Below are positions 5,794 through 40,887 of a DNA stretch of 64,000 nucleotides, in pieces. Origin of the DNA: Legionella sp. GTDB lineage: Bacteria; Pseudomonadota; Gammaproteobacteria; Legionellales; Legionellaceae. Location: positions 1-64,000 of the forward strand of contig PEQM01000039.1 of the NCBI GenBank assembly GCA_002786205.1. Reading direction: 5' to 3'. How positions within the stretch are numbered: position 1 is the first letter of the stretch; each line of letters starts with the position of its first letter. Both the position numbers and the translations under genes were made by a program. Under the pieces are notes generated by a model, which saw only the letters and a list, made by a program, of their open reading frames with translations, did no database searches and had not been told where the DNA came from.

Positions 5794-7389
5794 CTCAGTC
5801 TTTTCATGGTGTCCATTAGACTCATCGTTTAATTCATCTATCCCCTGTGCAAATTGGTCCAAAATGCTTTTAGATTCTGTTGGCGGTAATGAGAAAAATG
5901 TATTCCAGTAACCCTGTTTAGTAGCCACTAAAGCCAAGGGAACAATCAAGGTGAATGACACCACAATCCCTAGACATGCACGTAATACAGGATGTAATGA
6001 AAACCATAGGCCACGATGTTTTGTAAACGCATCATCGGCATGATGAATGGCGTCTTTTAATGCCCTATAAAAAACAGTCAAATTCTCTCTTGTCATAGAG
6101 GGCTGTGTAAAAAACTGATTTTTAGCTGCTGTAATTGCTTCACTTAAGGTCTTAGCCGCCAGGCAAACGCTAGCATGATGGCTATACTTCTCATGCAATT
6201 GGGCTATTTTTAAATTCAATTGATAGCAACATCCATTGAATTTTATCTCTTGTTGAAATCTGTCATTGTTTTGAATGGTCTTTTGGTATTGTTTTGCGGA
6301 CAGTTCTGAGGAATGTCGGGTCAGATGTTTGACCCCATTAACTATCTTCCCCTTCCCAAAAGAAGAGTCTAAATTCTGATGCGATGGCAATTTCTTTCCA
6401 TTTTTTCGTATGTCTTCATCACCGATATGACCATGTACAAAACGGACATTAAAAAAACCTTTAGGCTTCACTACTAATTCATCACCTACTTTTCTATTCC
6501 AGATCAGACGATTCCACGGGGTTTTCAGCTCAATCTTTTTATTGGTCAAGCATCCTGTTTGCCTTTCCTGTCCGATGAATTCAACCAATTGTCCATTATG
6601 CCATAAAGCCTTCACCGCTTTATTTAATTGTTCAATACACTCTATCAACTGAATTGCTGACAACGTACCGTACGTTATGGGACGCATGACACCTCGTTGG
6701 TTTATATCCTTTACTATTTGCTCAACAGTCTCCAATCCTACCGGCGCATGCGTAAATAAAGTCAAAGCGCCATCCAAATCCACAGCATAATCAATGGCTT
6801 TTACATAAGGCTGATATGCCTCGCGAATCATTGTTCGCACCTCTTCTTCATTGATTAGGTCGCGTACAATCAATTTTCTCATATTCGTCAAGGACAGGGC
6901 TTGTCCTGATAATAAAGTTGCTTTTCCTGTGAACTGCTTATTGGAAAAATCATTAATAAATTCAACGCCATGATTGGATAAAACAATGCTAAAATCCACA
7001 TTTTCTTTATGAAGTTTATTGAAAACTAATAAAGTGAAGTAATCATTACTCCCTCTATCGGCAAGCTCATCACCAATAATGACCAGTGCTTTATTATTTC
7101 TAACGATTGCACTGTCAATTAATTTGGCAAAGTGGTCACAGTCTTCTTGAGTGACATCATTAATCGGTTTTTTATATATTCGGAACAGCTGACGGTATTT
7201 TTCCGGCTCAATTTCAAATAAGCCTTCTTCTATAAGAACATAGATAAGCTTCATTGCATTGCCATGCAAGTCCCCTATGCTCACATGCGAAGCACTATGC
7301 TTGATAGGTTGCGGGCATCTCACCAAATTGGCATCCGCTCGTTCAACCAAAGCCACCTTGCTCAGAATCTGTTGCGCTTCATCAGACAT
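5782..7389 (-). CDS. WipA/WipB-like PPP-fold phosphatase, Dot/Icm effector candidate
   Basis: A 535-residue protein with the metal-binding motifs of PPP-type metallophosphatases in altered form: GDLHGN (39-44), GDELADRG (106-113), SNH in place of GNHE (138-140), then H214 and VHGH (318-321). The ADRG and SNH variants are those of the Legionella effectors WipA and WipB; WipA is known as a tyrosine phosphatase secreted by Dot/Icm. A hydrophobic segment near residues 470-490 could anchor it to a membrane, and the last 25 residues are rich in Glu, Asp and Ser, as in Dot/Icm signals. GAGGGA precedes the ATG. It follows the GT2-GtrA gene by 35 bases. Family assignment is firm; effector status and substrate are inferred. 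Confidence 0.85.
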   Translation of the reverse strand: MSDEAQQILSKVALVERADANLVRCPQPIKHSASHVSIGDLHGNAMKLIYVLIEEGLFEIEPEKYRQLFRIYKKPINDVTQEDCDHFAKLIDSAIVRNNKALVIIGDELADRGSNDYFTLLVFNKLHKENVDFSIVLSNHGVEFINDFSNKQFTGKATLLSGQALSLTNMRKLIVRDLINEEEVRTMIREAYQPYVKAIDYAVDLDGALTLFTHAPVGLETVEQIVKDINQRGVMRPITYGTLSAIQLIECIEQLNKAVKALWHNGQLVEFIGQERQTGCLTNKKIELKTPWNRLIWNRKVGDELVVKPKGFFNVRFVHGHIGDEDIRKNGKKLPSHQNLDSSFGKGKIVNGVKHLTRHSSELSAKQYQKTIQNNDRFQQEIKFNGCCYQLNLKIAQLHEKYSHHASVCLAAKTLSEAITAAKNQFFTQPSMTRENLTVFYRALKDAIHHADDAFTKHRGLWFSLHPVLRACLGIVVSFTLIVPLALVATKQGYWNTFFSLPPTESKSILDQFAQGIDELNDESNGHHEKTELSA

Positions 7390-31580: not shown

Positions 31581-33509
31581 TTACTTTTGATAATAAGTCC
31601 GTTGTAATAACAAAACATCGCGGACTATCGATTTTCTTAACAAGGAAAGAGACAAAGGCATTAGATACTGATCCGTCATACTGATAGCGCCTGAGGTATG
31701 TATCGTAGTTAATCGATCGGGTTCAATAATACCTGTCGTTGCGTAACTGCCAGCGATGATAAAAGGCTTTCTGTCGGTCGCAGTTAACAGGTCTTGTCCT
31801 ATGCTGTAATCTGAGCGCGGGTTAGTGCAGTGAAATAAACGTGTTGCTAAAGTAGGCATCAGATCATAACTGCTGGTGCGGTATGCTATTTTGCGCGAAG
31901 ATTGCTTGGGCCAATGAATCAATAAGGGGATCTTCGTTTGATAAACCGAGTAATTGCTGGCATGTCCCCAATAGTTTTGATGGTTTTCATTGAACTCTTG
32001 CCCATGATCTGAAGTGATAATAACAATGCTATTATCCCAATAGCCCTCGTCTTTAATGGCTTTTAACAGCAGCTGCAATTGCTCATCGATGAAATGTACC
32101 GTATTTAAATAATTATTGTAATAAGGCTCTCTATCAACGCGATTGTCCATTCCTATTCGAGAACAAACTCTCTGGTAAGGCTGGTAGACAATAGGAATTT
32201 TAGCCAAATTACAATAGGCATGAGGCGCATTATAAAAAACATTCAAGAACAAGGCTTGATGTTGTTTTTTTTCTTGTCTTAAAAATTGCAAGGCCTGGTC
32301 TGTACTGTCTCTATCCCAATCGCTCTCTATTTTTTTTAAAGAACCATCAGCCGCCAGATCCGGTACTCTTTGATAAATGGTTTTGTCCAATGGCGGATTA
32401 CGCATTTCCGCAGAATAAATCACTCGCATTTTATACTGATATTGCGTCAACCAATCAAAAAGAACCGGTGCCACATGCTGCTCTAGCGCGGCATTCCAAT
32501 AAGTACCAGGAATAGAATAAAATAAAGAGAACAAGCCTGCCTGAGTTGAGTTCCCGCCGCTGTAATGATGCAAAAATTGCCAGCTTTCATTCGCAAAAGA
32601 CTGGAGATAAGGCATGTATTGCAAACTGTCAAAACGCAAAGAATCAACCATAATCAAAAAAATATTATAAGGCCGTTTGGCATCAGGTCGTTGGCAATTT
32701 AACGGGTGTAATGGATATTGGATGGTTTCATGTGAATAAGGGGCCTGCATGTAATGCGCCTCACTGAAATCATTGAGTAGTTCTTCGGCATTTTTTTGTG
32801 GGATAAGTAATCCAAGCAATTGATTATACAGTGGAAGATTAGAAGCTTGCTGGATGAGTAGGTTATTATGATGTACCGCCAGACTCAGCATCATAATAAA
32901 ATAGCTTAATACCGCAAGACTACTCCAGCCCCAAACAAGAAATCGGCCTATCATCAAGCGTTTTGGTAAAATAATGCCATACCAGACGCCATAAGCAAGC
33001 CCCCATTCTACCAATAAAATCAACATGGCCACGCCATAAATAATCAATTGCTCTACCGAGCTTAAATTAAATACTCGATGTGCCTCTTTACTGAATATAA
33101 ATCCAAAGATGGTTTGATTTAAATGAAATTTGAACAAAGCATAAACTTGCACATCAATGATCAACAGCAACAAAGACAAGGTAGCCAGAATCCAGCTTAA
33201 ACCCATCACCATAGTTTTCTTTGGATAAAACAGCGCAACCAGAGCCGGCACTATAGCCGGAATAAAGGCCAGCACGGTCATATAACTGATAAAATTGATT
33301 CCGGTAAAAAAAAGAATCAAGACTTGGCCTGCGGGACTTGAATAATCAGCCATCATGTTTTTAAACAGCGTCGGGCTATGTAAAATGCTATGCAAGTAGC
33401 TCAAGCCAGCTAGCCAAAAGAAAAGCGCATTAAAGAAAAAAAACCAACCGACAAAGCGCAAGCAGGGATTGGTTTTTATTTTTAAAAATAAAGATGAAGT
33501 CGTCAGCAT
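31581..33509 (-). CDS. YejM/PbgA-like inner membrane protein, sulfatase fold
   Basis: A 642-residue protein with about five N-terminal membrane segments (residues 20-215) in the DUF3413 pattern and a large periplasmic sulfatase/alkaline-phosphatase-fold domain. The latter opens IFLIMVDSLRFDSL and has HYSGGNSTQAGLFSLFYSIPG and ITSDHGQEFNENH. E. coli YejM (PbgA/LapC) senses periplasmic LPS and controls LpxC breakdown and lacks sulfatase activity. The same LPS-homeostasis role is likely but inferred. It is a single gene, divergent from the regulator at 33943. Confidence 0.85.
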   Translation of the reverse strand: MLTTSSLFLKIKTNPCLRFVGWFFFFNALFFWLAGLSYLHSILHSPTLFKNMMADYSSPAGQVLILFFTGINFISYMTVLAFIPAIVPALVALFYPKKTMVMGLSWILATLSLLLLIIDVQVYALFKFHLNQTIFGFIFSKEAHRVFNLSSVEQLIIYGVAMLILLVEWGLAYGVWYGIILPKRLMIGRFLVWGWSSLAVLSYFIMMLSLAVHHNNLLIQQASNLPLYNQLLGLLIPQKNAEELLNDFSEAHYMQAPYSHETIQYPLHPLNCQRPDAKRPYNIFLIMVDSLRFDSLQYMPYLQSFANESWQFLHHYSGGNSTQAGLFSLFYSIPGTYWNAALEQHVAPVLFDWLTQYQYKMRVIYSAEMRNPPLDKTIYQRVPDLAADGSLKKIESDWDRDSTDQALQFLRQEKKQHQALFLNVFYNAPHAYCNLAKIPIVYQPYQRVCSRIGMDNRVDREPYYNNYLNTVHFIDEQLQLLLKAIKDEGYWDNSIVIITSDHGQEFNENHQNYWGHASNYSVYQTKIPLLIHWPKQSSRKIAYRTSSYDLMPTLATRLFHCTNPRSDYSIGQDLLTATDRKPFIIAGSYATTGIIEPDRLTTIHTSGAISMTDQYLMPLSLSLLRKSIVRDVLLLQRTYYQK

Positions 33510-33659
33510 AGTAAATCAGCCTAGCACACCTGATGCCTCAATAAAAGCCATCGCCAGCACGCCCTAAATGACGACAACATCATGCCATACGAAAAATCGT
33601 GCACAACAGCCCGCTACCACTGTTTTTAGCTGCAAAAGACTACTCTCCCTATCATCAAT

Positions 33660-33805
33660 AAAAAAGGCCCGAATAGGGGAGAGCTATTCAGGCCTGGGTT
33701 GCGAGGCAAAACCAACTATGGCAGCCCACTCTTGCATCCTTGTCTGTTGGACAAAAGAAAATGTTCCATCGTTTTTCTTTTATGAAACCATCCTTTACTG
33801 TTTCG
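33660..33805 (-). ncRNA. Candidate small regulatory RNA, about 146 nt
   Basis: A minus-strand unit bounded by a good promoter (33812-33839) and a strong intrinsic terminator: arms 33665-33676 and 33684-33695, 12 base pairs with one G-U, followed by six T residues. No gene on the minus strand runs into this terminator. The predicted RNA has three GGA motifs: AAAGGATG, ACAAGGATGC (close to the CsrA consensus ACARGGAUG), and GATGGAAC held in the loop of a hairpin with a perfect nine-base AAAAGAAAA/TTTTCTTTT stem (33753-33761 with 33773-33781). This pattern resembles Rsm-type CsrA-titrating RNAs. A 61-codon open frame overlaps but begins upstream of the promoter. The 33510-33659 stretch beside it shows nothing. 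Confidence 0.5.
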
Positions 33806-33811
33806 CCGCTC

Positions 33812-33839
33812 ATTTTACTAATAAACCCAATAAAGTCAA
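33812..33839 (-). promoter_or_regulatory. Sigma-70 promoter driving the candidate small RNA
   Basis: Minus-strand TTGACT (33839-33834) and TAAAAT (33817-33812) with a 16-base spacer; five of six consensus bases in each box. Expected start near 33805. Confidence 0.6.
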
Positions 33840-33852
33840 CCATTAATTTCAA

Positions 33853-33873
33853 ATGGAAACCAATAGTTTCCAT
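33853..33873. promoter_or_regulatory. Palindromic operator candidate between divergent promoters
   Basis: ATGGAAAC and GTTTCCAT form a perfect eight-base palindrome with a five-base centre. It lies 13 bases upstream of the -35 of the HTH gene promoter and 14 bases upstream of the -35 of the small RNA promoter, an ideal place for a dimeric regulator to act on both. The HTH protein encoded at 33943 is the obvious candidate binder. Confidence 0.55.
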
Positions 33874-33885
33874 ATTTTCTTTTCA

Positions 33886-33914
33886 TTGAATAAAATCACT
33901 GCTTTTGTTACACT
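33886..33914 (+). promoter_or_regulatory. Sigma-70 promoter of the HTH-MFS operon
   Basis: TTGAAT (33886-33891) and TACACT (33909-33914) are 17 bases apart, giving a start near 33921 and a leader of about 22 bases before the ATG at 33943. Confidence 0.6.
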
Positions 33915-33942: not shown

Positions 33943-34416
33943 ATGGAAAAAGTTGATTTAACCAAACAGTTTTCTTATCGCTTACGTGATGCCATGATCC
34001 ATGCAGGATTTAACTCTCAACGTTCGGCCACGGGAGTTTGTATTGATAAATTGGTAGAAATTACCGGCTATTCCATGCAAATTTGCCGTAAATATTTGAG
34101 AGGCCAAGCCATTCCAGAACCTGTCAAATTAATAGAAATTGCGAAACAACTCAATGTTTCTCCTGGATGGCTTTTATTTGGGGATGCCCATAATGACACC
34201 AACAAAGAACAGGATGCGGTGGTCATTAACAAAAATTTACTTCACTATATTTTCACTAAAGCCTCATCCCTGTATACTACTTTGCATATGGAACATGAAG
34301 TACCAAGCTTTCTTATGGAATTAATTCGCGACATCAGCTTGATTAATGCCAATGAAGAACAATCCAAAAAAATTATAGACTTGGCTATTTCATCAATAAA
34401 ACATTTTAATTCTTAA
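33943..34416 (+). CDS. Helix-turn-helix transcriptional regulator, XRE-like
   Basis: A 157-residue protein whose first about 85 residues fit an XRE/lambda-repressor HTH: LVEITGYSMQICRKYLRGQAIPEP is the HTH core (cited in part: ITGYSMQICRKYLRG), followed by LIEIAKQLNVSPGWLLFG, a motif seen in many phage-repressor-like regulators. The C-terminal half is helical and without a known effector domain. There is no strong ribosome binding site. It starts a three-gene operon with an unknown protein and an MFS transporter, and probably regulates them and itself through the nearby palindrome. Confidence 0.8.
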   Translation: MEKVDLTKQFSYRLRDAMIHAGFNSQRSATGVCIDKLVEITGYSMQICRKYLRGQAIPEPVKLIEIAKQLNVSPGWLLFGDAHNDTNKEQDAVVINKNLLHYIFTKASSLYTTLHMEHEVPSFLMELIRDISLINANEEQSKKIIDLAISSIKHFNS

Positions 34417-34422
34417 ACATGG

Positions 34423-34989
34423 ATGTACTCAGAGATTATGGATACTTGTTGTAATAAAGTGACTCCCCACCCTGCTTTTCTTGATTTTTTGTTTGCATTT
34501 AAAAAAAAGACATCCAGTGTTTTTCGCGATATTCTAGGCATACATGATCTGGCTCATTTAGCCATTACTCAAGTTAGTACGGGCAATCATTTATTAACGC
34601 TGTCATCTACTCCGTCATTGGAATTTAATTTATTTAGCAGCCCCTTATGGCATTATGATCGCTCTTATGATCCAGCGTGGTTTAGCTCATCTATTCCTTG
34701 CTATTGGCATCAGCTATATCATCCAGAACGCTATGATGAACTGTACTATTTAAAACAAATCAAACATCAATATGCACTTGGTTTGTCTTTAGCAACAGCG
34801 CTTGCTGATAAAAAAATAATCTATTCTCTGGCAATCCAGCACGATACGCCTCAAGCGCGTGAATTATTTTCTTGCATGCATGATGATTTTTATAAAATTG
34901 GACAATACTGCTTTAATCTGCTGGAGCCCTTATTCACTCAAACATTGCAAGTACCTTTTTCAAAAGGCTCACAGGATATAAGCTCATGA
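34423..34989 (+). CDS. Unknown protein between regulator and transporter genes
   Basis: A 188-residue soluble protein I cannot place in a family. It is rich in aromatic residues (SPLWHYDRSYDPAWF near residue 75-90, CYWHQLYHPERYDELYYLK) and has no signal peptide or membrane segment. The aromatic pattern and predicted alpha/beta layout recall the ligand-sensing half of LuxR-type or PAS-like regulators, but no DNA-binding domain follows. It begins 7 bases after the HTH gene (an ATG at 34438 is an alternative start) and its stop overlaps the transporter ATG. A role as ligand sensor or partner of the HTH protein is a guess from context. Confidence 0.65.
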   Translation: MYSEIMDTCCNKVTPHPAFLDFLFAFKKKTSSVFRDILGIHDLAHLAITQVSTGNHLLTLSSTPSLEFNLFSSPLWHYDRSYDPAWFSSSIPCYWHQLYHPERYDELYYLKQIKHQYALGLSLATALADKKIIYSLAIQHDTPQARELFSCMHDDFYKIGQYCFNLLEPLFTQTLQVPFSKGSQDISS

Positions 34990-38106: not shown

Positions 38107-40887
38107 TCAAAAAGCCAATAGGTTATTTTCAGGCTTATGGTCAAACGCATCGATTAATACTTTAGTCGACGGCGTAGGCCGGAAAAAAAAGGAATGTTCG
38201 GATGCATTCTCCAACGTAAAATCATGCTGATTGAGTCGTCGCTTGGCTGCAATCTCGGCAAAAGAGACTTTATATTGCTGGTTTTGATGCCAGACGGGGT
38301 ACTTTTGCTCAATTGACTCTTTGAAAGTACATTTTTGTTCTTGCACATCGGCTTTCATTTGCGACAACAATTCACGCAAAACATCACTTTTTTTATGCGC
38401 TGAGGCATCACTCATACTGTCTAAGCGTACTATTGCTTTATCACAGGTATCTTCCAATGTAGATGAGAGATTTTCATTTTGCTTAAAACAAGACAGCATG
38501 GCATCGAATGCAATCAGGACAATCGAAACTGCAGCATGAAGGACATGATAGCTCTGATAGCTGGCAGCAAAGGGGATAAATATTAATTGAGCCATACACA
38601 AAAAATAGAGTTCCCAGTCCAAAAACAGTATTCGCCAAAGGAGCTCATTGCCCGTTCCTACCAGTGGATTCTGCCAATATTGGCGATTGAGTTGACCCAC
38701 CAGAAGACAACCTATAAGCCCATACCAGAAAAAAGGGCTTATGGCGGCCGTTAAATACGGAAGGAGTGTCAAAGCAACAAAGGACAAACTGATTTTTAAC
38801 AGTGAAAGAGCCAGTCGGTATAATGCATTCATCAACTTTATCCACTGAGTCCATATTGCTTGCGAGAAACTTAAACTATTTTGATAGGACTTAAATCCGG
38901 CAAACCAATTGTCTGTCTGGGCTAAAAAGAGCGAAATCTTATCAGGGTCTTGTTGCCGGCAAGCCATTTGCCGTATAGACCAATACTCATCACTCCAATC
39001 GACATTCAATTGCGTTTTAATCTGTCGGTTGAATTGTTGCAAAGTAGCCATCGCGTCCTTGTCCTCGAAAAAAGGCAGAGGCGAGTATGCATTTTTTTGT
39101 CGGTACTCGATGACTTTCACTAATAACTCAGGATTAAGTTGACCAACGACTTGAAGAAAGTCACTGGCGCTTATCTGGGCTGGTGTTATTAAGCGATGAA
39201 ACGCTTTAATTCGGAGAAAAGAAGTCAAGGCCTGCTGGTAAGAAACAGGCTTGACAGGACAAAGCAAGAAAGGTTCTTTCTGATACTCCTTGGGAAGATG
39301 CCATAGGAGATAGGAATGTTGAGAGAGGACCTGCGTCATCCAATCTTTGATGCTACCGCTAATCGGAGTTTCATTAAAAGATGCAGCTTGACTCGCTTGC
39401 AAAAACAGCTCGCTCTGGTTTTGCAAAGAGGGGTCCAAATAGCCAAAAAACAGCGGATTATTATCCAACAGCACCTTCGCTATATGAGCATTCTTCAACA
39501 AGGGGGCAGACAGCGTTTGCAACAAATGGTGCTCTGTGCCGATTAAACTCAGCATTTGGGTGATAATAAGGTTCATTTTCGCTGGATCATGGTCTGTGCT
39601 TGCTTCACATAGCATCAGATCAAGAATAATCATCGCTGCTTCAATAAAACGGGTGTCTGTTTTTAACTGCCGAGGAACCATCATTAACACATCTAGGCAG
39701 GTTTCGATATGGCTTAACAGGAGTTCAGGATACTGTATCAGCAACTGCACATTTTGACTTAATACATGATGAGTAGCATGATTATGCTGCTGTAAGCTTT
39801 CATTGACATGAAGCAGCTGCTCCAAAGAAATACCTTTTTTTAACCATACATCAGGTACGTGATCCGGCTTATTTTTTAAGGCATGCAAGCTAAGCCAATA
39901 CTGATCAACCACTAATTTTTCGCTAACCAACCGCTTGATGATTGGTTGAATTTCCTTTTTTGATTTTAAGGTAAACTCAAGATAGTCTTCTGACATATCA
40001 CCTACAGAATGGACTATCTCGGTCATCTTAACGCCGTTAAAATCAGCATCAATAGATCGCTGCAAAAGAACTGTTTTATCTGCTGAAAACGTCACCGAAC
40101 TCTTTTCCCAGAGGGTCTTATCAAGCTGTAGTGTAGAAATCAGTTCATCTAAATAATAATGGGTTAGGTTATCTGTGGCTTGTTGCTCATACTGTTCAAA
40201 AAAGGCAGGATAGTGCTTATTAAAAAATGATTGCAAAGCAGTCGTATCAATCATGCTGACATGCACATCCCAAATTTTTTCTGCCGTAGTGATCCCCAAA
40301 TGTTCTTTATTCGCCAATTCAACCAGTTTATTGTAAGTATGGACATCTGAACTACCATAGGCTTGGTGTAGCAGATGCATCACCTGATTGCGTGCTTTAG
40401 CCAATTCGGTTTGTATCCAGTCGCCGTCTTTGCGATGATCTTGTAAGGTGGTATAAAATCGACCATTAATTCCAGTCTCACAGGTGCCTAGAGCATCCAG
40501 GATAGCCTTTAACAGGGTTTTTCTTTCAAAGGAATTGAGCTGATAACGTGCATCGGTATTGGTGTATAAAAAAAGAAATTCTTCAAAATAATTAACGCAT
40601 TGTTGTAATGACAAATTATAGTAACTGACTGCCGTTTCCTTTCGCTTGCTGGTAAATGCTGATAACTCCTGGCGAAAGTGTTTTAACTCTTCACAAGACA
40701 TGTCATTTTCTTGCAATGAGTCTTTAAATGCTTCCATCAAGACAGTCCATTTTTCCTGCGTACTCATGCCCTGATAATTGGAAAATTGAGACTCTAGCGT
40801 ATCTTTTTTTGCTTGCAGATAATCTTTATAAGCAGGGACAGCATAAAATTTATTACTCGGCAGATAAAAGTTATTTTGATACAGCAT
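38107..40887 (-). CDS. Large orphan protein with C-terminal membrane segments, effector candidate
   Basis: A 926-residue protein that I do not recognise. The first about 670 residues are largely helical and soluble with no known motif. Residues about 680-810 contain three or four hydrophobic segments (LLKISLSFVALTLLPYLTAA, WYGLIGCLLVGQL, FLCMAQLIFIPFAA, VSIVLIAFDAML). A charged 115-residue tail follows and the protein ends ENNLLAF, with leucines near the -3/-4 positions favoured in Dot/Icm signals. No signal peptide. AGGTGG precedes the ATG, and a promoter with a palindrome over the start site is present upstream. Size, orphan nature and membrane segments fit a Legionella effector; this is inference only. 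Confidence 0.7.
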   Translation of the reverse strand: MLYQNNFYLPSNKFYAVPAYKDYLQAKKDTLESQFSNYQGMSTQEKWTVLMEAFKDSLQENDMSCEELKHFRQELSAFTSKRKETAVSYYNLSLQQCVNYFEEFLFLYTNTDARYQLNSFERKTLLKAILDALGTCETGINGRFYTTLQDHRKDGDWIQTELAKARNQVMHLLHQAYGSSDVHTYNKLVELANKEHLGITTAEKIWDVHVSMIDTTALQSFFNKHYPAFFEQYEQQATDNLTHYYLDELISTLQLDKTLWEKSSVTFSADKTVLLQRSIDADFNGVKMTEIVHSVGDMSEDYLEFTLKSKKEIQPIIKRLVSEKLVVDQYWLSLHALKNKPDHVPDVWLKKGISLEQLLHVNESLQQHNHATHHVLSQNVQLLIQYPELLLSHIETCLDVLMMVPRQLKTDTRFIEAAMIILDLMLCEASTDHDPAKMNLIITQMLSLIGTEHHLLQTLSAPLLKNAHIAKVLLDNNPLFFGYLDPSLQNQSELFLQASQAASFNETPISGSIKDWMTQVLSQHSYLLWHLPKEYQKEPFLLCPVKPVSYQQALTSFLRIKAFHRLITPAQISASDFLQVVGQLNPELLVKVIEYRQKNAYSPLPFFEDKDAMATLQQFNRQIKTQLNVDWSDEYWSIRQMACRQQDPDKISLFLAQTDNWFAGFKSYQNSLSFSQAIWTQWIKLMNALYRLALSLLKISLSFVALTLLPYLTAAISPFFWYGLIGCLLVGQLNRQYWQNPLVGTGNELLWRILFLDWELYFLCMAQLIFIPFAASYQSYHVLHAAVSIVLIAFDAMLSCFKQNENLSSTLEDTCDKAIVRLDSMSDASAHKKSDVLRELLSQMKADVQEQKCTFKESIEQKYPVWHQNQQYKVSFAEIAAKRRLNQHDFTLENASEHSFFFRPTPSTKVLIDAFDHKPENNLLAF

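What the first reader, a model, noticed from the sequence alone, without database searches (positions are those of the whole stretch)
33660..33839. Promoter-to-terminator small RNA with CsrA-type GGA motifs
Seen: minus-strand TTGACT-16-TAAAAT, about 146 nt without a gene, then a 12-pair terminator with six T. The RNA would carry three GGA motifs: one close to the CsrA consensus (ACAAGGATGC) and one presented in the loop of a perfect nine-base hairpin. Known: Legionella uses Rsm-type RNAs of this design to titrate CsrA and switch between replication and transmission. Inference: this may be an additional Rsm-like RNA or another regulatory RNA. No convincing LetA palindrome was found upstream.
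Basis: partly seen in the sequence, partly recalled or inferred. Interest (0 to 1): 0.7.

Follow-up and report, generated by a model that had tools for sequence, protein, structure and literature searches.

The report
Conserved Legionella small RNA and repressor
The spot looks like a real small regulatory RNA gene that is shared by most of the Legionella family, usually beside a repressor-like gene; it has loops that could hold the regulator CsrA, but it is not one of the two known CsrA-trapping RNAs.

Summary
In detail: promoter, gene-free stretch, three GGA motifs, nine-pair hairpin and terminator are there. Conservation makes it real. The same RNA lies divergently from an orthologous HTH gene in 45 of 45 genomes of the genus and 29 of 30 loci from named records; a covariance model finds it in 109 of 143 genomes of the order; a model built without the window's sequence still finds it, 63.6 bits. 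No Rfam family reaches threshold. It is not RsmY or RsmZ: G000 has two GGA-rich LetA-box loci elsewhere, which the model does not hit. Hairpins present GGA in loops more than chance (1.81 per RNA against 0.27 in shuffles), which suits CsrA binding; but GGA number ranges from 1 to 6, and the steadiest part is a 3' core that CsrA titration does not explain. The promoter carries half-sites every 10 bp, a pattern found mostly at this locus, pointing to local control by the HTH protein rather than LetA. Best reading: an HTH-controlled trans-acting sRNA with partial CsrA-binding architecture. No transcript or binding was tested.

The parts
33658..33806 (-). small RNA gene, about 148 nt, extent given by the covariance models
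   Evidence: R2 (built without this genome) 33806-33658, 63.6 bits; R1 (includes it) 33805-33658, 74.9 bits
33834..33839 (-). -35 box TTGACT
   Evidence: TTGACA in 41 of 45 genus genomes
33812..33817 (-). -10 box TAAAAT, spacer 16
   Evidence: spacer 16 in 43 of 45
33846..33870 (-). operator-like GAAAC-N5-GTTTC-N5-GAAAT: half-sites every 10 bp, alternating in direction, running on into the -35 box
33784..33804 (-). hairpin 1, GAAAC/GTTTC, loop with GGA at 33793-33791
   Evidence: its stem resembles the operator half-sites, so part of its conservation may be at the DNA level
33753..33781 (-). hairpin 2, nine pairs, loop ACGATGGAACA with GGA at 33767-33765
33747..33752 (-). conserved GTCCAA
33737..33739 (-). 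third GGA, in ACAAGGATGC ahead of the 3' core
33700..33729 (-). 3' core GTGG...CCATAG...CCTCGCA, with a short GTGG/CCAT hairpin; steadiest part of the family besides the terminator
33665..33695 (-). intrinsic terminator, 12 pairs; T run 33665-33660
   Evidence: in the family 9 of 11 counted pairs have changes on both sides
33943..34416 (+). HTH (Cro/CI-type) regulator gene, divergent, 157 aa; likely controls the sRNA promoter
   Evidence: ortholog in 45 of 45 genus genomes; HTH_3 match 22.9 bits, cut-off 23; weak fold matches to repressors
33886..33914 (+). likely promoter of the HTH gene, TTGAAT-17-TACACT
   Evidence: a related box found in 60 of 62 by a loose pattern, 57 of these 60 at 71-78 bp from the sRNA -35

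Best explanation
It is a standalone trans-acting small RNA of the Legionella family. Shown by comparison: a conserved sigma-70-type promoter, two hairpins that can offer GGA in their loops, conserved AGUCCAA, a conserved 3' core (GUGG-CCAUAGC-ACCUCGCA) and a terminator. Inferred (fairly likely): the divergently encoded HTH protein binds the 10-bp-spaced half-sites that run through the -35 box and represses the RNA, releasing it on a signal still unknown. Inferred (about even odds): the two loop GGAs bind one CsrA dimer. Inferred (more likely than not): the 3' core and the often C-rich terminator loop pair with mRNA leaders, so that the RNA regulates mRNAs directly and touches the CsrA system rather than being a pure CsrA trap.
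For: Family-wide conservation, one copy in 107 of the 109 matching genomes of the order; covariation score 0.266 against 0.145 in shuffles and at most 0.092 when slid, mainly from hairpin 2 and the terminator; GGA in hairpin loops 1.81 per RNA against 0.27 in shuffles, 47 of 62 with two or more (last 45 nt left out); hairpin-2 GGA mean unpaired probability 0.78 over 59 sequences, hairpin-1 GGA 0.73 over 51, body average 0.48; half-sites at -31, -21 and -11 of the -35 box in 55 of 62 each; the triple site in 42 of 45 genomes, 41 of its 52 places at this locus, 4 places in the 45 genomes for the reversed control pattern; near-consensus promoter, which suits repression; HTH fold matches led by repressors DdrO, 434 and P22, weak profile matches to DicA and RstR; the most distant HTH ortholog found (43%) goes with a symmetrically changed dyad CAAAC-N5-GTTTG.
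Against: No transcript was seen, and no HTH-DNA, CsrA-RNA or mRNA pairing evidence exists here. In the window copy the lowest-energy fold hides the hairpin-2 GGA; over the family it is unpaired in the lowest-energy fold of 42 of 59. Hairpin 1 is only 66.7% paired in the alignment and its stem looks like the DNA half-sites. Two loci (L141, L148) have the array but no HTH hit in the DNA fetched, and L135 has the HTH but no dyad seen. In 10 of 45 genomes the triple site has a second place, in G017 only another place, in 3 none. The position of the sites would also allow activation. GGA number is not held. The HTH fold matches are weak (best E 0.036). No mRNA target was searched for.
Confidence: 0.55

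Rival explanations
1. A true extra Rsm-type RNA whose main job is to sequester CsrA, under a control other than LetA.
For: GGA in hairpin loops far above shuffles; hairpin-2 stems differ widely while the loop keeps a GATGGAAC-like form, 38 of 59 exactly that; all three GGA of the window copy have the form A-N-GGA; CsrA present in G000, two matches over the family cut-off. PMC5338858 (passages read) counts five small RNAs among 479 CsrA RIP-seq targets; which ones is in a supplement I could not read.
Against: Only 1 GGA in 5 and 2 in 8 of 62 homologues, while the GGA-rich sides of nine LetA-pattern loci carry 4-7 in the 200 nt examined; 3' core steadier than GGA; no LetA box.
Confidence: 0.2
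2. An mRNA for a small protein started at the ATGGAA of hairpin 2, or the 61-codon or 92-codon frame.
For: The ATG of GATGGAA is widely kept, with AAGGAAG upstream in many; the distance from it to the 3' core favours one phase somewhat (30, 17 and 14 of 61).
Against: No ATGGA frame in 4 of 62 (G005, G032, G033, L076); frame lengths run from 2 to 39 or more codons; the phase is not held; 61- and 92-codon frames not conserved; hairpin-2 stem covaries.
Confidence: 0.04
3. A leader or attenuator of the gene downstream.
For: In G000 the next gene lies on the same strand.
Against: The downstream context differs: a tRNA gene begins 59-687 nt after the terminator in 22 of 45, not in the 696-1251 nt available in the other 23; the sulfatase gene only in G000; strong conserved terminator.
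Confidence: 0.03
4. Chance promoter and terminator with nothing transcribed.
For: Promoter-like sites no more frequent than in shuffles.
Against: Match of an independent model at E 5e-12 and order-wide conservation.
Confidence: 0.01

Closest known systems
RsmY and RsmZ of Legionella (CsrB/RsmZ class)
   Same: short standalone RNA, GGA in hairpin loops
   Different: no LetA palindrome, fewer and variable GGA, no hit of the model on the LetA-pattern loci, a conserved 3' core of its own, own HTH neighbour
Divergent regulator-sRNA pairs such as GcvA/GcvB, OxyR/OxyS, SgrR/SgrS (recalled, no call)
   Same: sRNA gene divergent from a regulator gene with shared control DNA
   Different: regulator is Cro/CI-like and probably a repressor; no sequence relation was tested
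DicA-type repressors (NCBIfam NF007257) and DdrO
   Same: weak HTH-domain match and fold match of the neighbouring protein
   Different: 25 bits against a curated cut-off of 101; best Foldseek E 0.036
CyaR (RF00112)
   Same: weak matches over the 3' part, 23.6 bits here and 33 in one relative, helped by a terminator with a C-rich loop
   Different: gathering score 47 not reached
McaS of E. coli (recalled, no call)
   Same: idea of an sRNA with GGA sites for CsrA that also pairs with mRNAs
   Different: no relation tested

Membership tests
Rsm/CsrB-type CsrA-sequestering RNA | standalone RNA with promoter and terminator | tested here: met
   by sequence and conservation; no transcript seen
Rsm/CsrB-type CsrA-sequestering RNA | GGA presented in hairpin loops | tested here: met
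   by stem score: 3 of 3 in the window copy, 55 of 62 homologues at least one, 47 of 62 two or more; but the window copy's lowest-energy fold pairs one of them
Rsm/CsrB-type CsrA-sequestering RNA | many GGA motifs, kept across the family | tested here: not met
   3 here; 1:5, 2:8, 3:18, 4:20, 5:9, 6:2 of 62
Rsm/CsrB-type CsrA-sequestering RNA | GacA/LetA box upstream | tested here: not met
   the exact LetA pattern (recalled) occurs only at two other places of G000
Rsm/CsrB-type CsrA-sequestering RNA | match to an Rfam Csr/Rsm family or kinship with the RsmY/RsmZ candidates | tested here: not met
   0 of 10 LetA-pattern loci hit by R1
Rsm/CsrB-type CsrA-sequestering RNA | binds and titrates CsrA | not testable with these tools
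   no binding data; supplement of PMC5338858 could not be read
Divergent regulator-sRNA module | regulator gene divergent and adjacent across species | tested here: met
   45 of 45 genus genomes; 14 of 20 loci from other genera
Divergent regulator-sRNA module | operator-like sites at the sRNA promoter | tested here: met
   (sequence only)
Divergent regulator-sRNA module | regulator controls the sRNA | not testable with these tools
   needs experiment or published expression data
CyaR (RF00112) | gathering score of 47 bits | tested here: not met
   23.6 bits; 33 bits in a relative

The most novel reading that the evidence does not exclude
Legionella has a second entry into the CsrA switch that does not pass through LetA: a Cro/CI-like repressor, acting on a phased operator used almost only here, releases a GGA-hairpin RNA that both binds CsrA and pairs with mRNAs. 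The module is spread much more widely than RsmX, which PMC5928044 (passage read) says is absent from L. pneumophila Philadelphia-1 and L. longbeachae.
Probability: 0.3. Interest if true: 0.72.

Novelty: new member of a known kind. Interest (0 to 1): 0.55.

Why it matters
An RNA kept in 109 of 143 genomes of the order, usually beside the same regulator gene, probably does something central in these amoeba-dwelling bacteria, yet no Rfam family reaches threshold for it. If it touches CsrA, it adds an input to the switch between growth and transmission that does not depend on LetA. The covariance model makes its place findable in species that already have published RNA-seq.

Tried and rejected
Rejected: kinship with the RsmY/RsmZ candidates; coding frames; attenuator of one downstream gene; CyaR; the idea that HTH paralogs (36-43% identical) have a similar sRNA: 12 fetched loci, 0 model hits, other sequence upstream. 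Plasmid search gave nothing. PDB sequence search with the HTH profile gave nothing. RNAalifold on A1 found only the terminator and the short core hairpin; hairpins 1 and 2 were set from one sequence (G034) and counted, so the counts lean towards it; hairpin 1 is 66.7% paired there, partly through misalignment. The family scan and the order scan share nearly all their genomes and are not independent; both and the class scan used stricter filters, and the class scan scored 7 candidates per genome and also missed the two further members of the family it lists, as the family scan had. Two of the 7 genomes searched have no exact LetA pattern, and one of the 10 pattern loci (L094) has no GGA-rich side. 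Literature: Sahr 2009, Sahr 2012 and Kulkarni 2006 are not held; supplements could not be read, so I cannot say whether the L. pneumophila ortholog is already listed as an lpr or lppnc RNA. The titles and abstract openings listed by eight paper searches name no such RNA family; most of those papers were not opened. In one search my extraction was wrong for loci whose match lay on the minus strand; redone, and its sulfatase search redone. The promoter pattern failed on nearly all rows; one search replaced it. Of the 62 sequences L081 and L083 were left out of A1 and only 25 were used for A2; L084 has no copy.

Full report
What was checked. The window is part of G000, a 2.10 Mb assembly in 63 contigs, 87% complete. 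Of the 45 genomes of its genus, 12 could be matched to named records, which are titled Legionella or Legionellaceae. On the minus strand lie TTGACT-16-TAAAAT, an RNA-sized stretch of about 148 nt, and a 12-pair terminator with a run of six T whose first T belongs to the stem. Taken alone, promoter-like sites are not above chance here (7 against 8.5 in shuffles) and the single fold is only mildly stable (z -1.65).

Conservation. The HTH gene to the right (33943-34416 plus) has an ortholog in 45 of 45 genomes. Upstream of it, on the opposite strand, each of the 45 has the same arrangement: TTGACA in 41 of 45, spacer 16 in 43 of 45, then an RNA-like region ending in a terminator. Of 30 loci from named records fetched with the HTH protein, 29 carry it by covariance model; L084 does not. 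Twelve of those 30 repeat a G genome over the 400 bases compared, so the working set is 45 + 17 = 62 sequences.

Is the window copy really a member? Model R1 includes it, so its 74.9 bits are not independent. Model R2 was built from 25 relatives without it and finds 33806-33658 minus at 63.6 bits, E 5e-12; the next match in 64 kb has E 0.4. R1 finds the RNA in 109 of 143 genomes of the order, in 24 of 33 genera, once per genome except for G110 (two) and G075 (three); the family scan, 106 of 140, covers nearly the same genomes. In 369 genomes of the class the only two matches at E 0.001 are in the window's own genus; two further members of the family in that sample had none. No Rfam family reaches its threshold in the region, nor in six relatives' loci apart from tRNA; the sub-threshold CyaR scores lean on a similar terminator.

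Anatomy. On alignment A1 (60 of the 62) hairpin 2 is 90.1% paired with changes on both sides at all 7 pairs, the terminator 96.4% with 9 of 11 such pairs, the short GTGG/CCAT hairpin 93.8% with none, hairpin 1 66.7% with 3 of 5; over the whole structure covariation is 0.266 against 0.145 (sd 0.006) in shuffles and at most 0.092 when slid. Outside the last 45 nt, GGA in a loop closed by a stem score of at least 5 occurs 1.81 times per RNA against 0.27 in shuffles; 55 of 62 have one or more, 47 of 62 two or more. By my site rules GGA lies in the hairpin-2 region in 59 of 62, in the hairpin-1 region in 51, between or beside them in 41, and just ahead of the 3' core in 31. The hairpin-2 GGA has mean unpaired probability 0.78 (59 sequences) and the hairpin-1 GGA 0.73 (51), against 0.48 over the bodies; the hairpin-2 GGA is unpaired in the lowest-energy fold of 42 of 59. 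The window copy is one of the awkward ones: its lowest-energy fold pairs the hairpin-2 GGA, and the form with both hairpins is 1.7 kcal/mol worse. The number of GGA is 1 in 5 sequences, 2 in 8, 3 in 18, 4 in 20, 5 in 9 and 6 in 2. The 3' core GTGG..CCATAGC..AACCTCGCA is the steadiest part besides the terminator, and in one distant genome (G075) three copies keep little more than these two.

Not RsmY or RsmZ. The LetA pattern (recalled) was searched in 7 genomes: it occurs at exactly two places in G000 and two in G033, at none in G002 and G035. Of 10 pattern loci, 9 have a GGA-rich stretch on one side, 4 to 7 GGA in the 200 nt examined; L094 has not. In G033 one of these places is base 6,566 of the first contig; the RsmY of L. 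pneumophila Paris bears the label lppnc0001 (PMC8828724, passages read), which fits an RNA near the start of the chromosome; that G033 is close to L. pneumophila, and that these loci are rsmY and rsmZ, is my inference. R1 hits none of the 10.

Control. Counted from the -35 box (set from the -10 box assuming spacer 16), half-sites GAAAY, RTTTC and GAAAY stand at -31, -21 and -11 in 55 of 62 sequences each, GTTGAC itself continues the period, and GAAAY follows at +9 in 26 of 62; the window copy has the first three and not the last. The triple site exists in 42 of 45 genomes, 52 places in all, 41 of them here and 11 elsewhere; G017 has it only elsewhere; the reversed pattern has 4 places. The sites overlap the sRNA promoter and lie upstream of the likely HTH promoter, whose box is 71-78 bp from the sRNA -35 in 57 of the 60 sequences where a loose pattern found it. 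The HTH protein is predicted with a confident N-terminal domain (mean pLDDT 81.2, pTM 0.51); its first solved-structure matches are repressors such as DdrO and 434, with P22 further down, none with E below 0.001. In 20 loci from other genera of the family, some of which repeat named loci, the HTH ortholog is found near 14; L144-L146 (G075) have neither HTH nor a real array; L141 and L148 have the array without a detected HTH; L135 has the HTH without a dyad seen; L136 ends at a contig end. In L143, with the most distant HTH (43%), both half-sites are changed symmetrically. I take this as good but indirect evidence that the HTH protein is the regulator, most likely a repressor.

Function. CsrA exists in G000, two matches over the family cut-off. 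The loop GGAs make CsrA binding plausible; the published RIP-seq counts five small RNAs among 479 CsrA targets (PMC5338858, passages read), but which five is in a supplement I could not read. The conserved AGUCCAA and ACCUCGC and the often C-rich terminator loop look like pairing regions; this is inference from conservation, and no target was searched. The coding rivals fail, though one phase is somewhat favoured (30, 17 and 14 of 61).

Verdict. Observation confirmed; Rsm-like reading partly supported. A family-wide sRNA without an Rfam family, usually beside one HTH gene, of a known general kind; its link to CsrA is open.

Noticed in passing
L103-L112: A second HTH gene, about 40% identical, has a different conserved repeat array upstream and a divergent small protein gene; no copy of this sRNA by model.
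   Followed up: partly
window 31581-33509 minus: A YejM-like sulfatase/DUF3413 gene lies next to the sRNA only in G000 among 45 genomes, within the 0.7-1.25 kb examined; 22 of 45 have a tRNA gene there.
   Followed up: partly
L144, L145, L146 (genome G075): Three copies that keep mainly the 3' core and terminator, with no HTH ortholog in the DNA fetched.
   Followed up: partly
window 34423-34989 plus: 188-aa protein after the HTH gene, no Pfam or NCBIfam match; similar reading frames seem to follow the HTH gene in relatives, seen by eye.
   Followed up: no
G000 C10:38541 and C12:35434 (L096, L100): Likely RsmY and RsmZ genes of this genome, each beside an exact LetA palindrome.
   Followed up: partly
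G000 C22:4024-4164 (L116): A second CsrA-family match besides the main one at C1:48525.
   Followed up: no
window 38107-40887 minus: 926-aa protein with no Pfam match.
   Followed up: no
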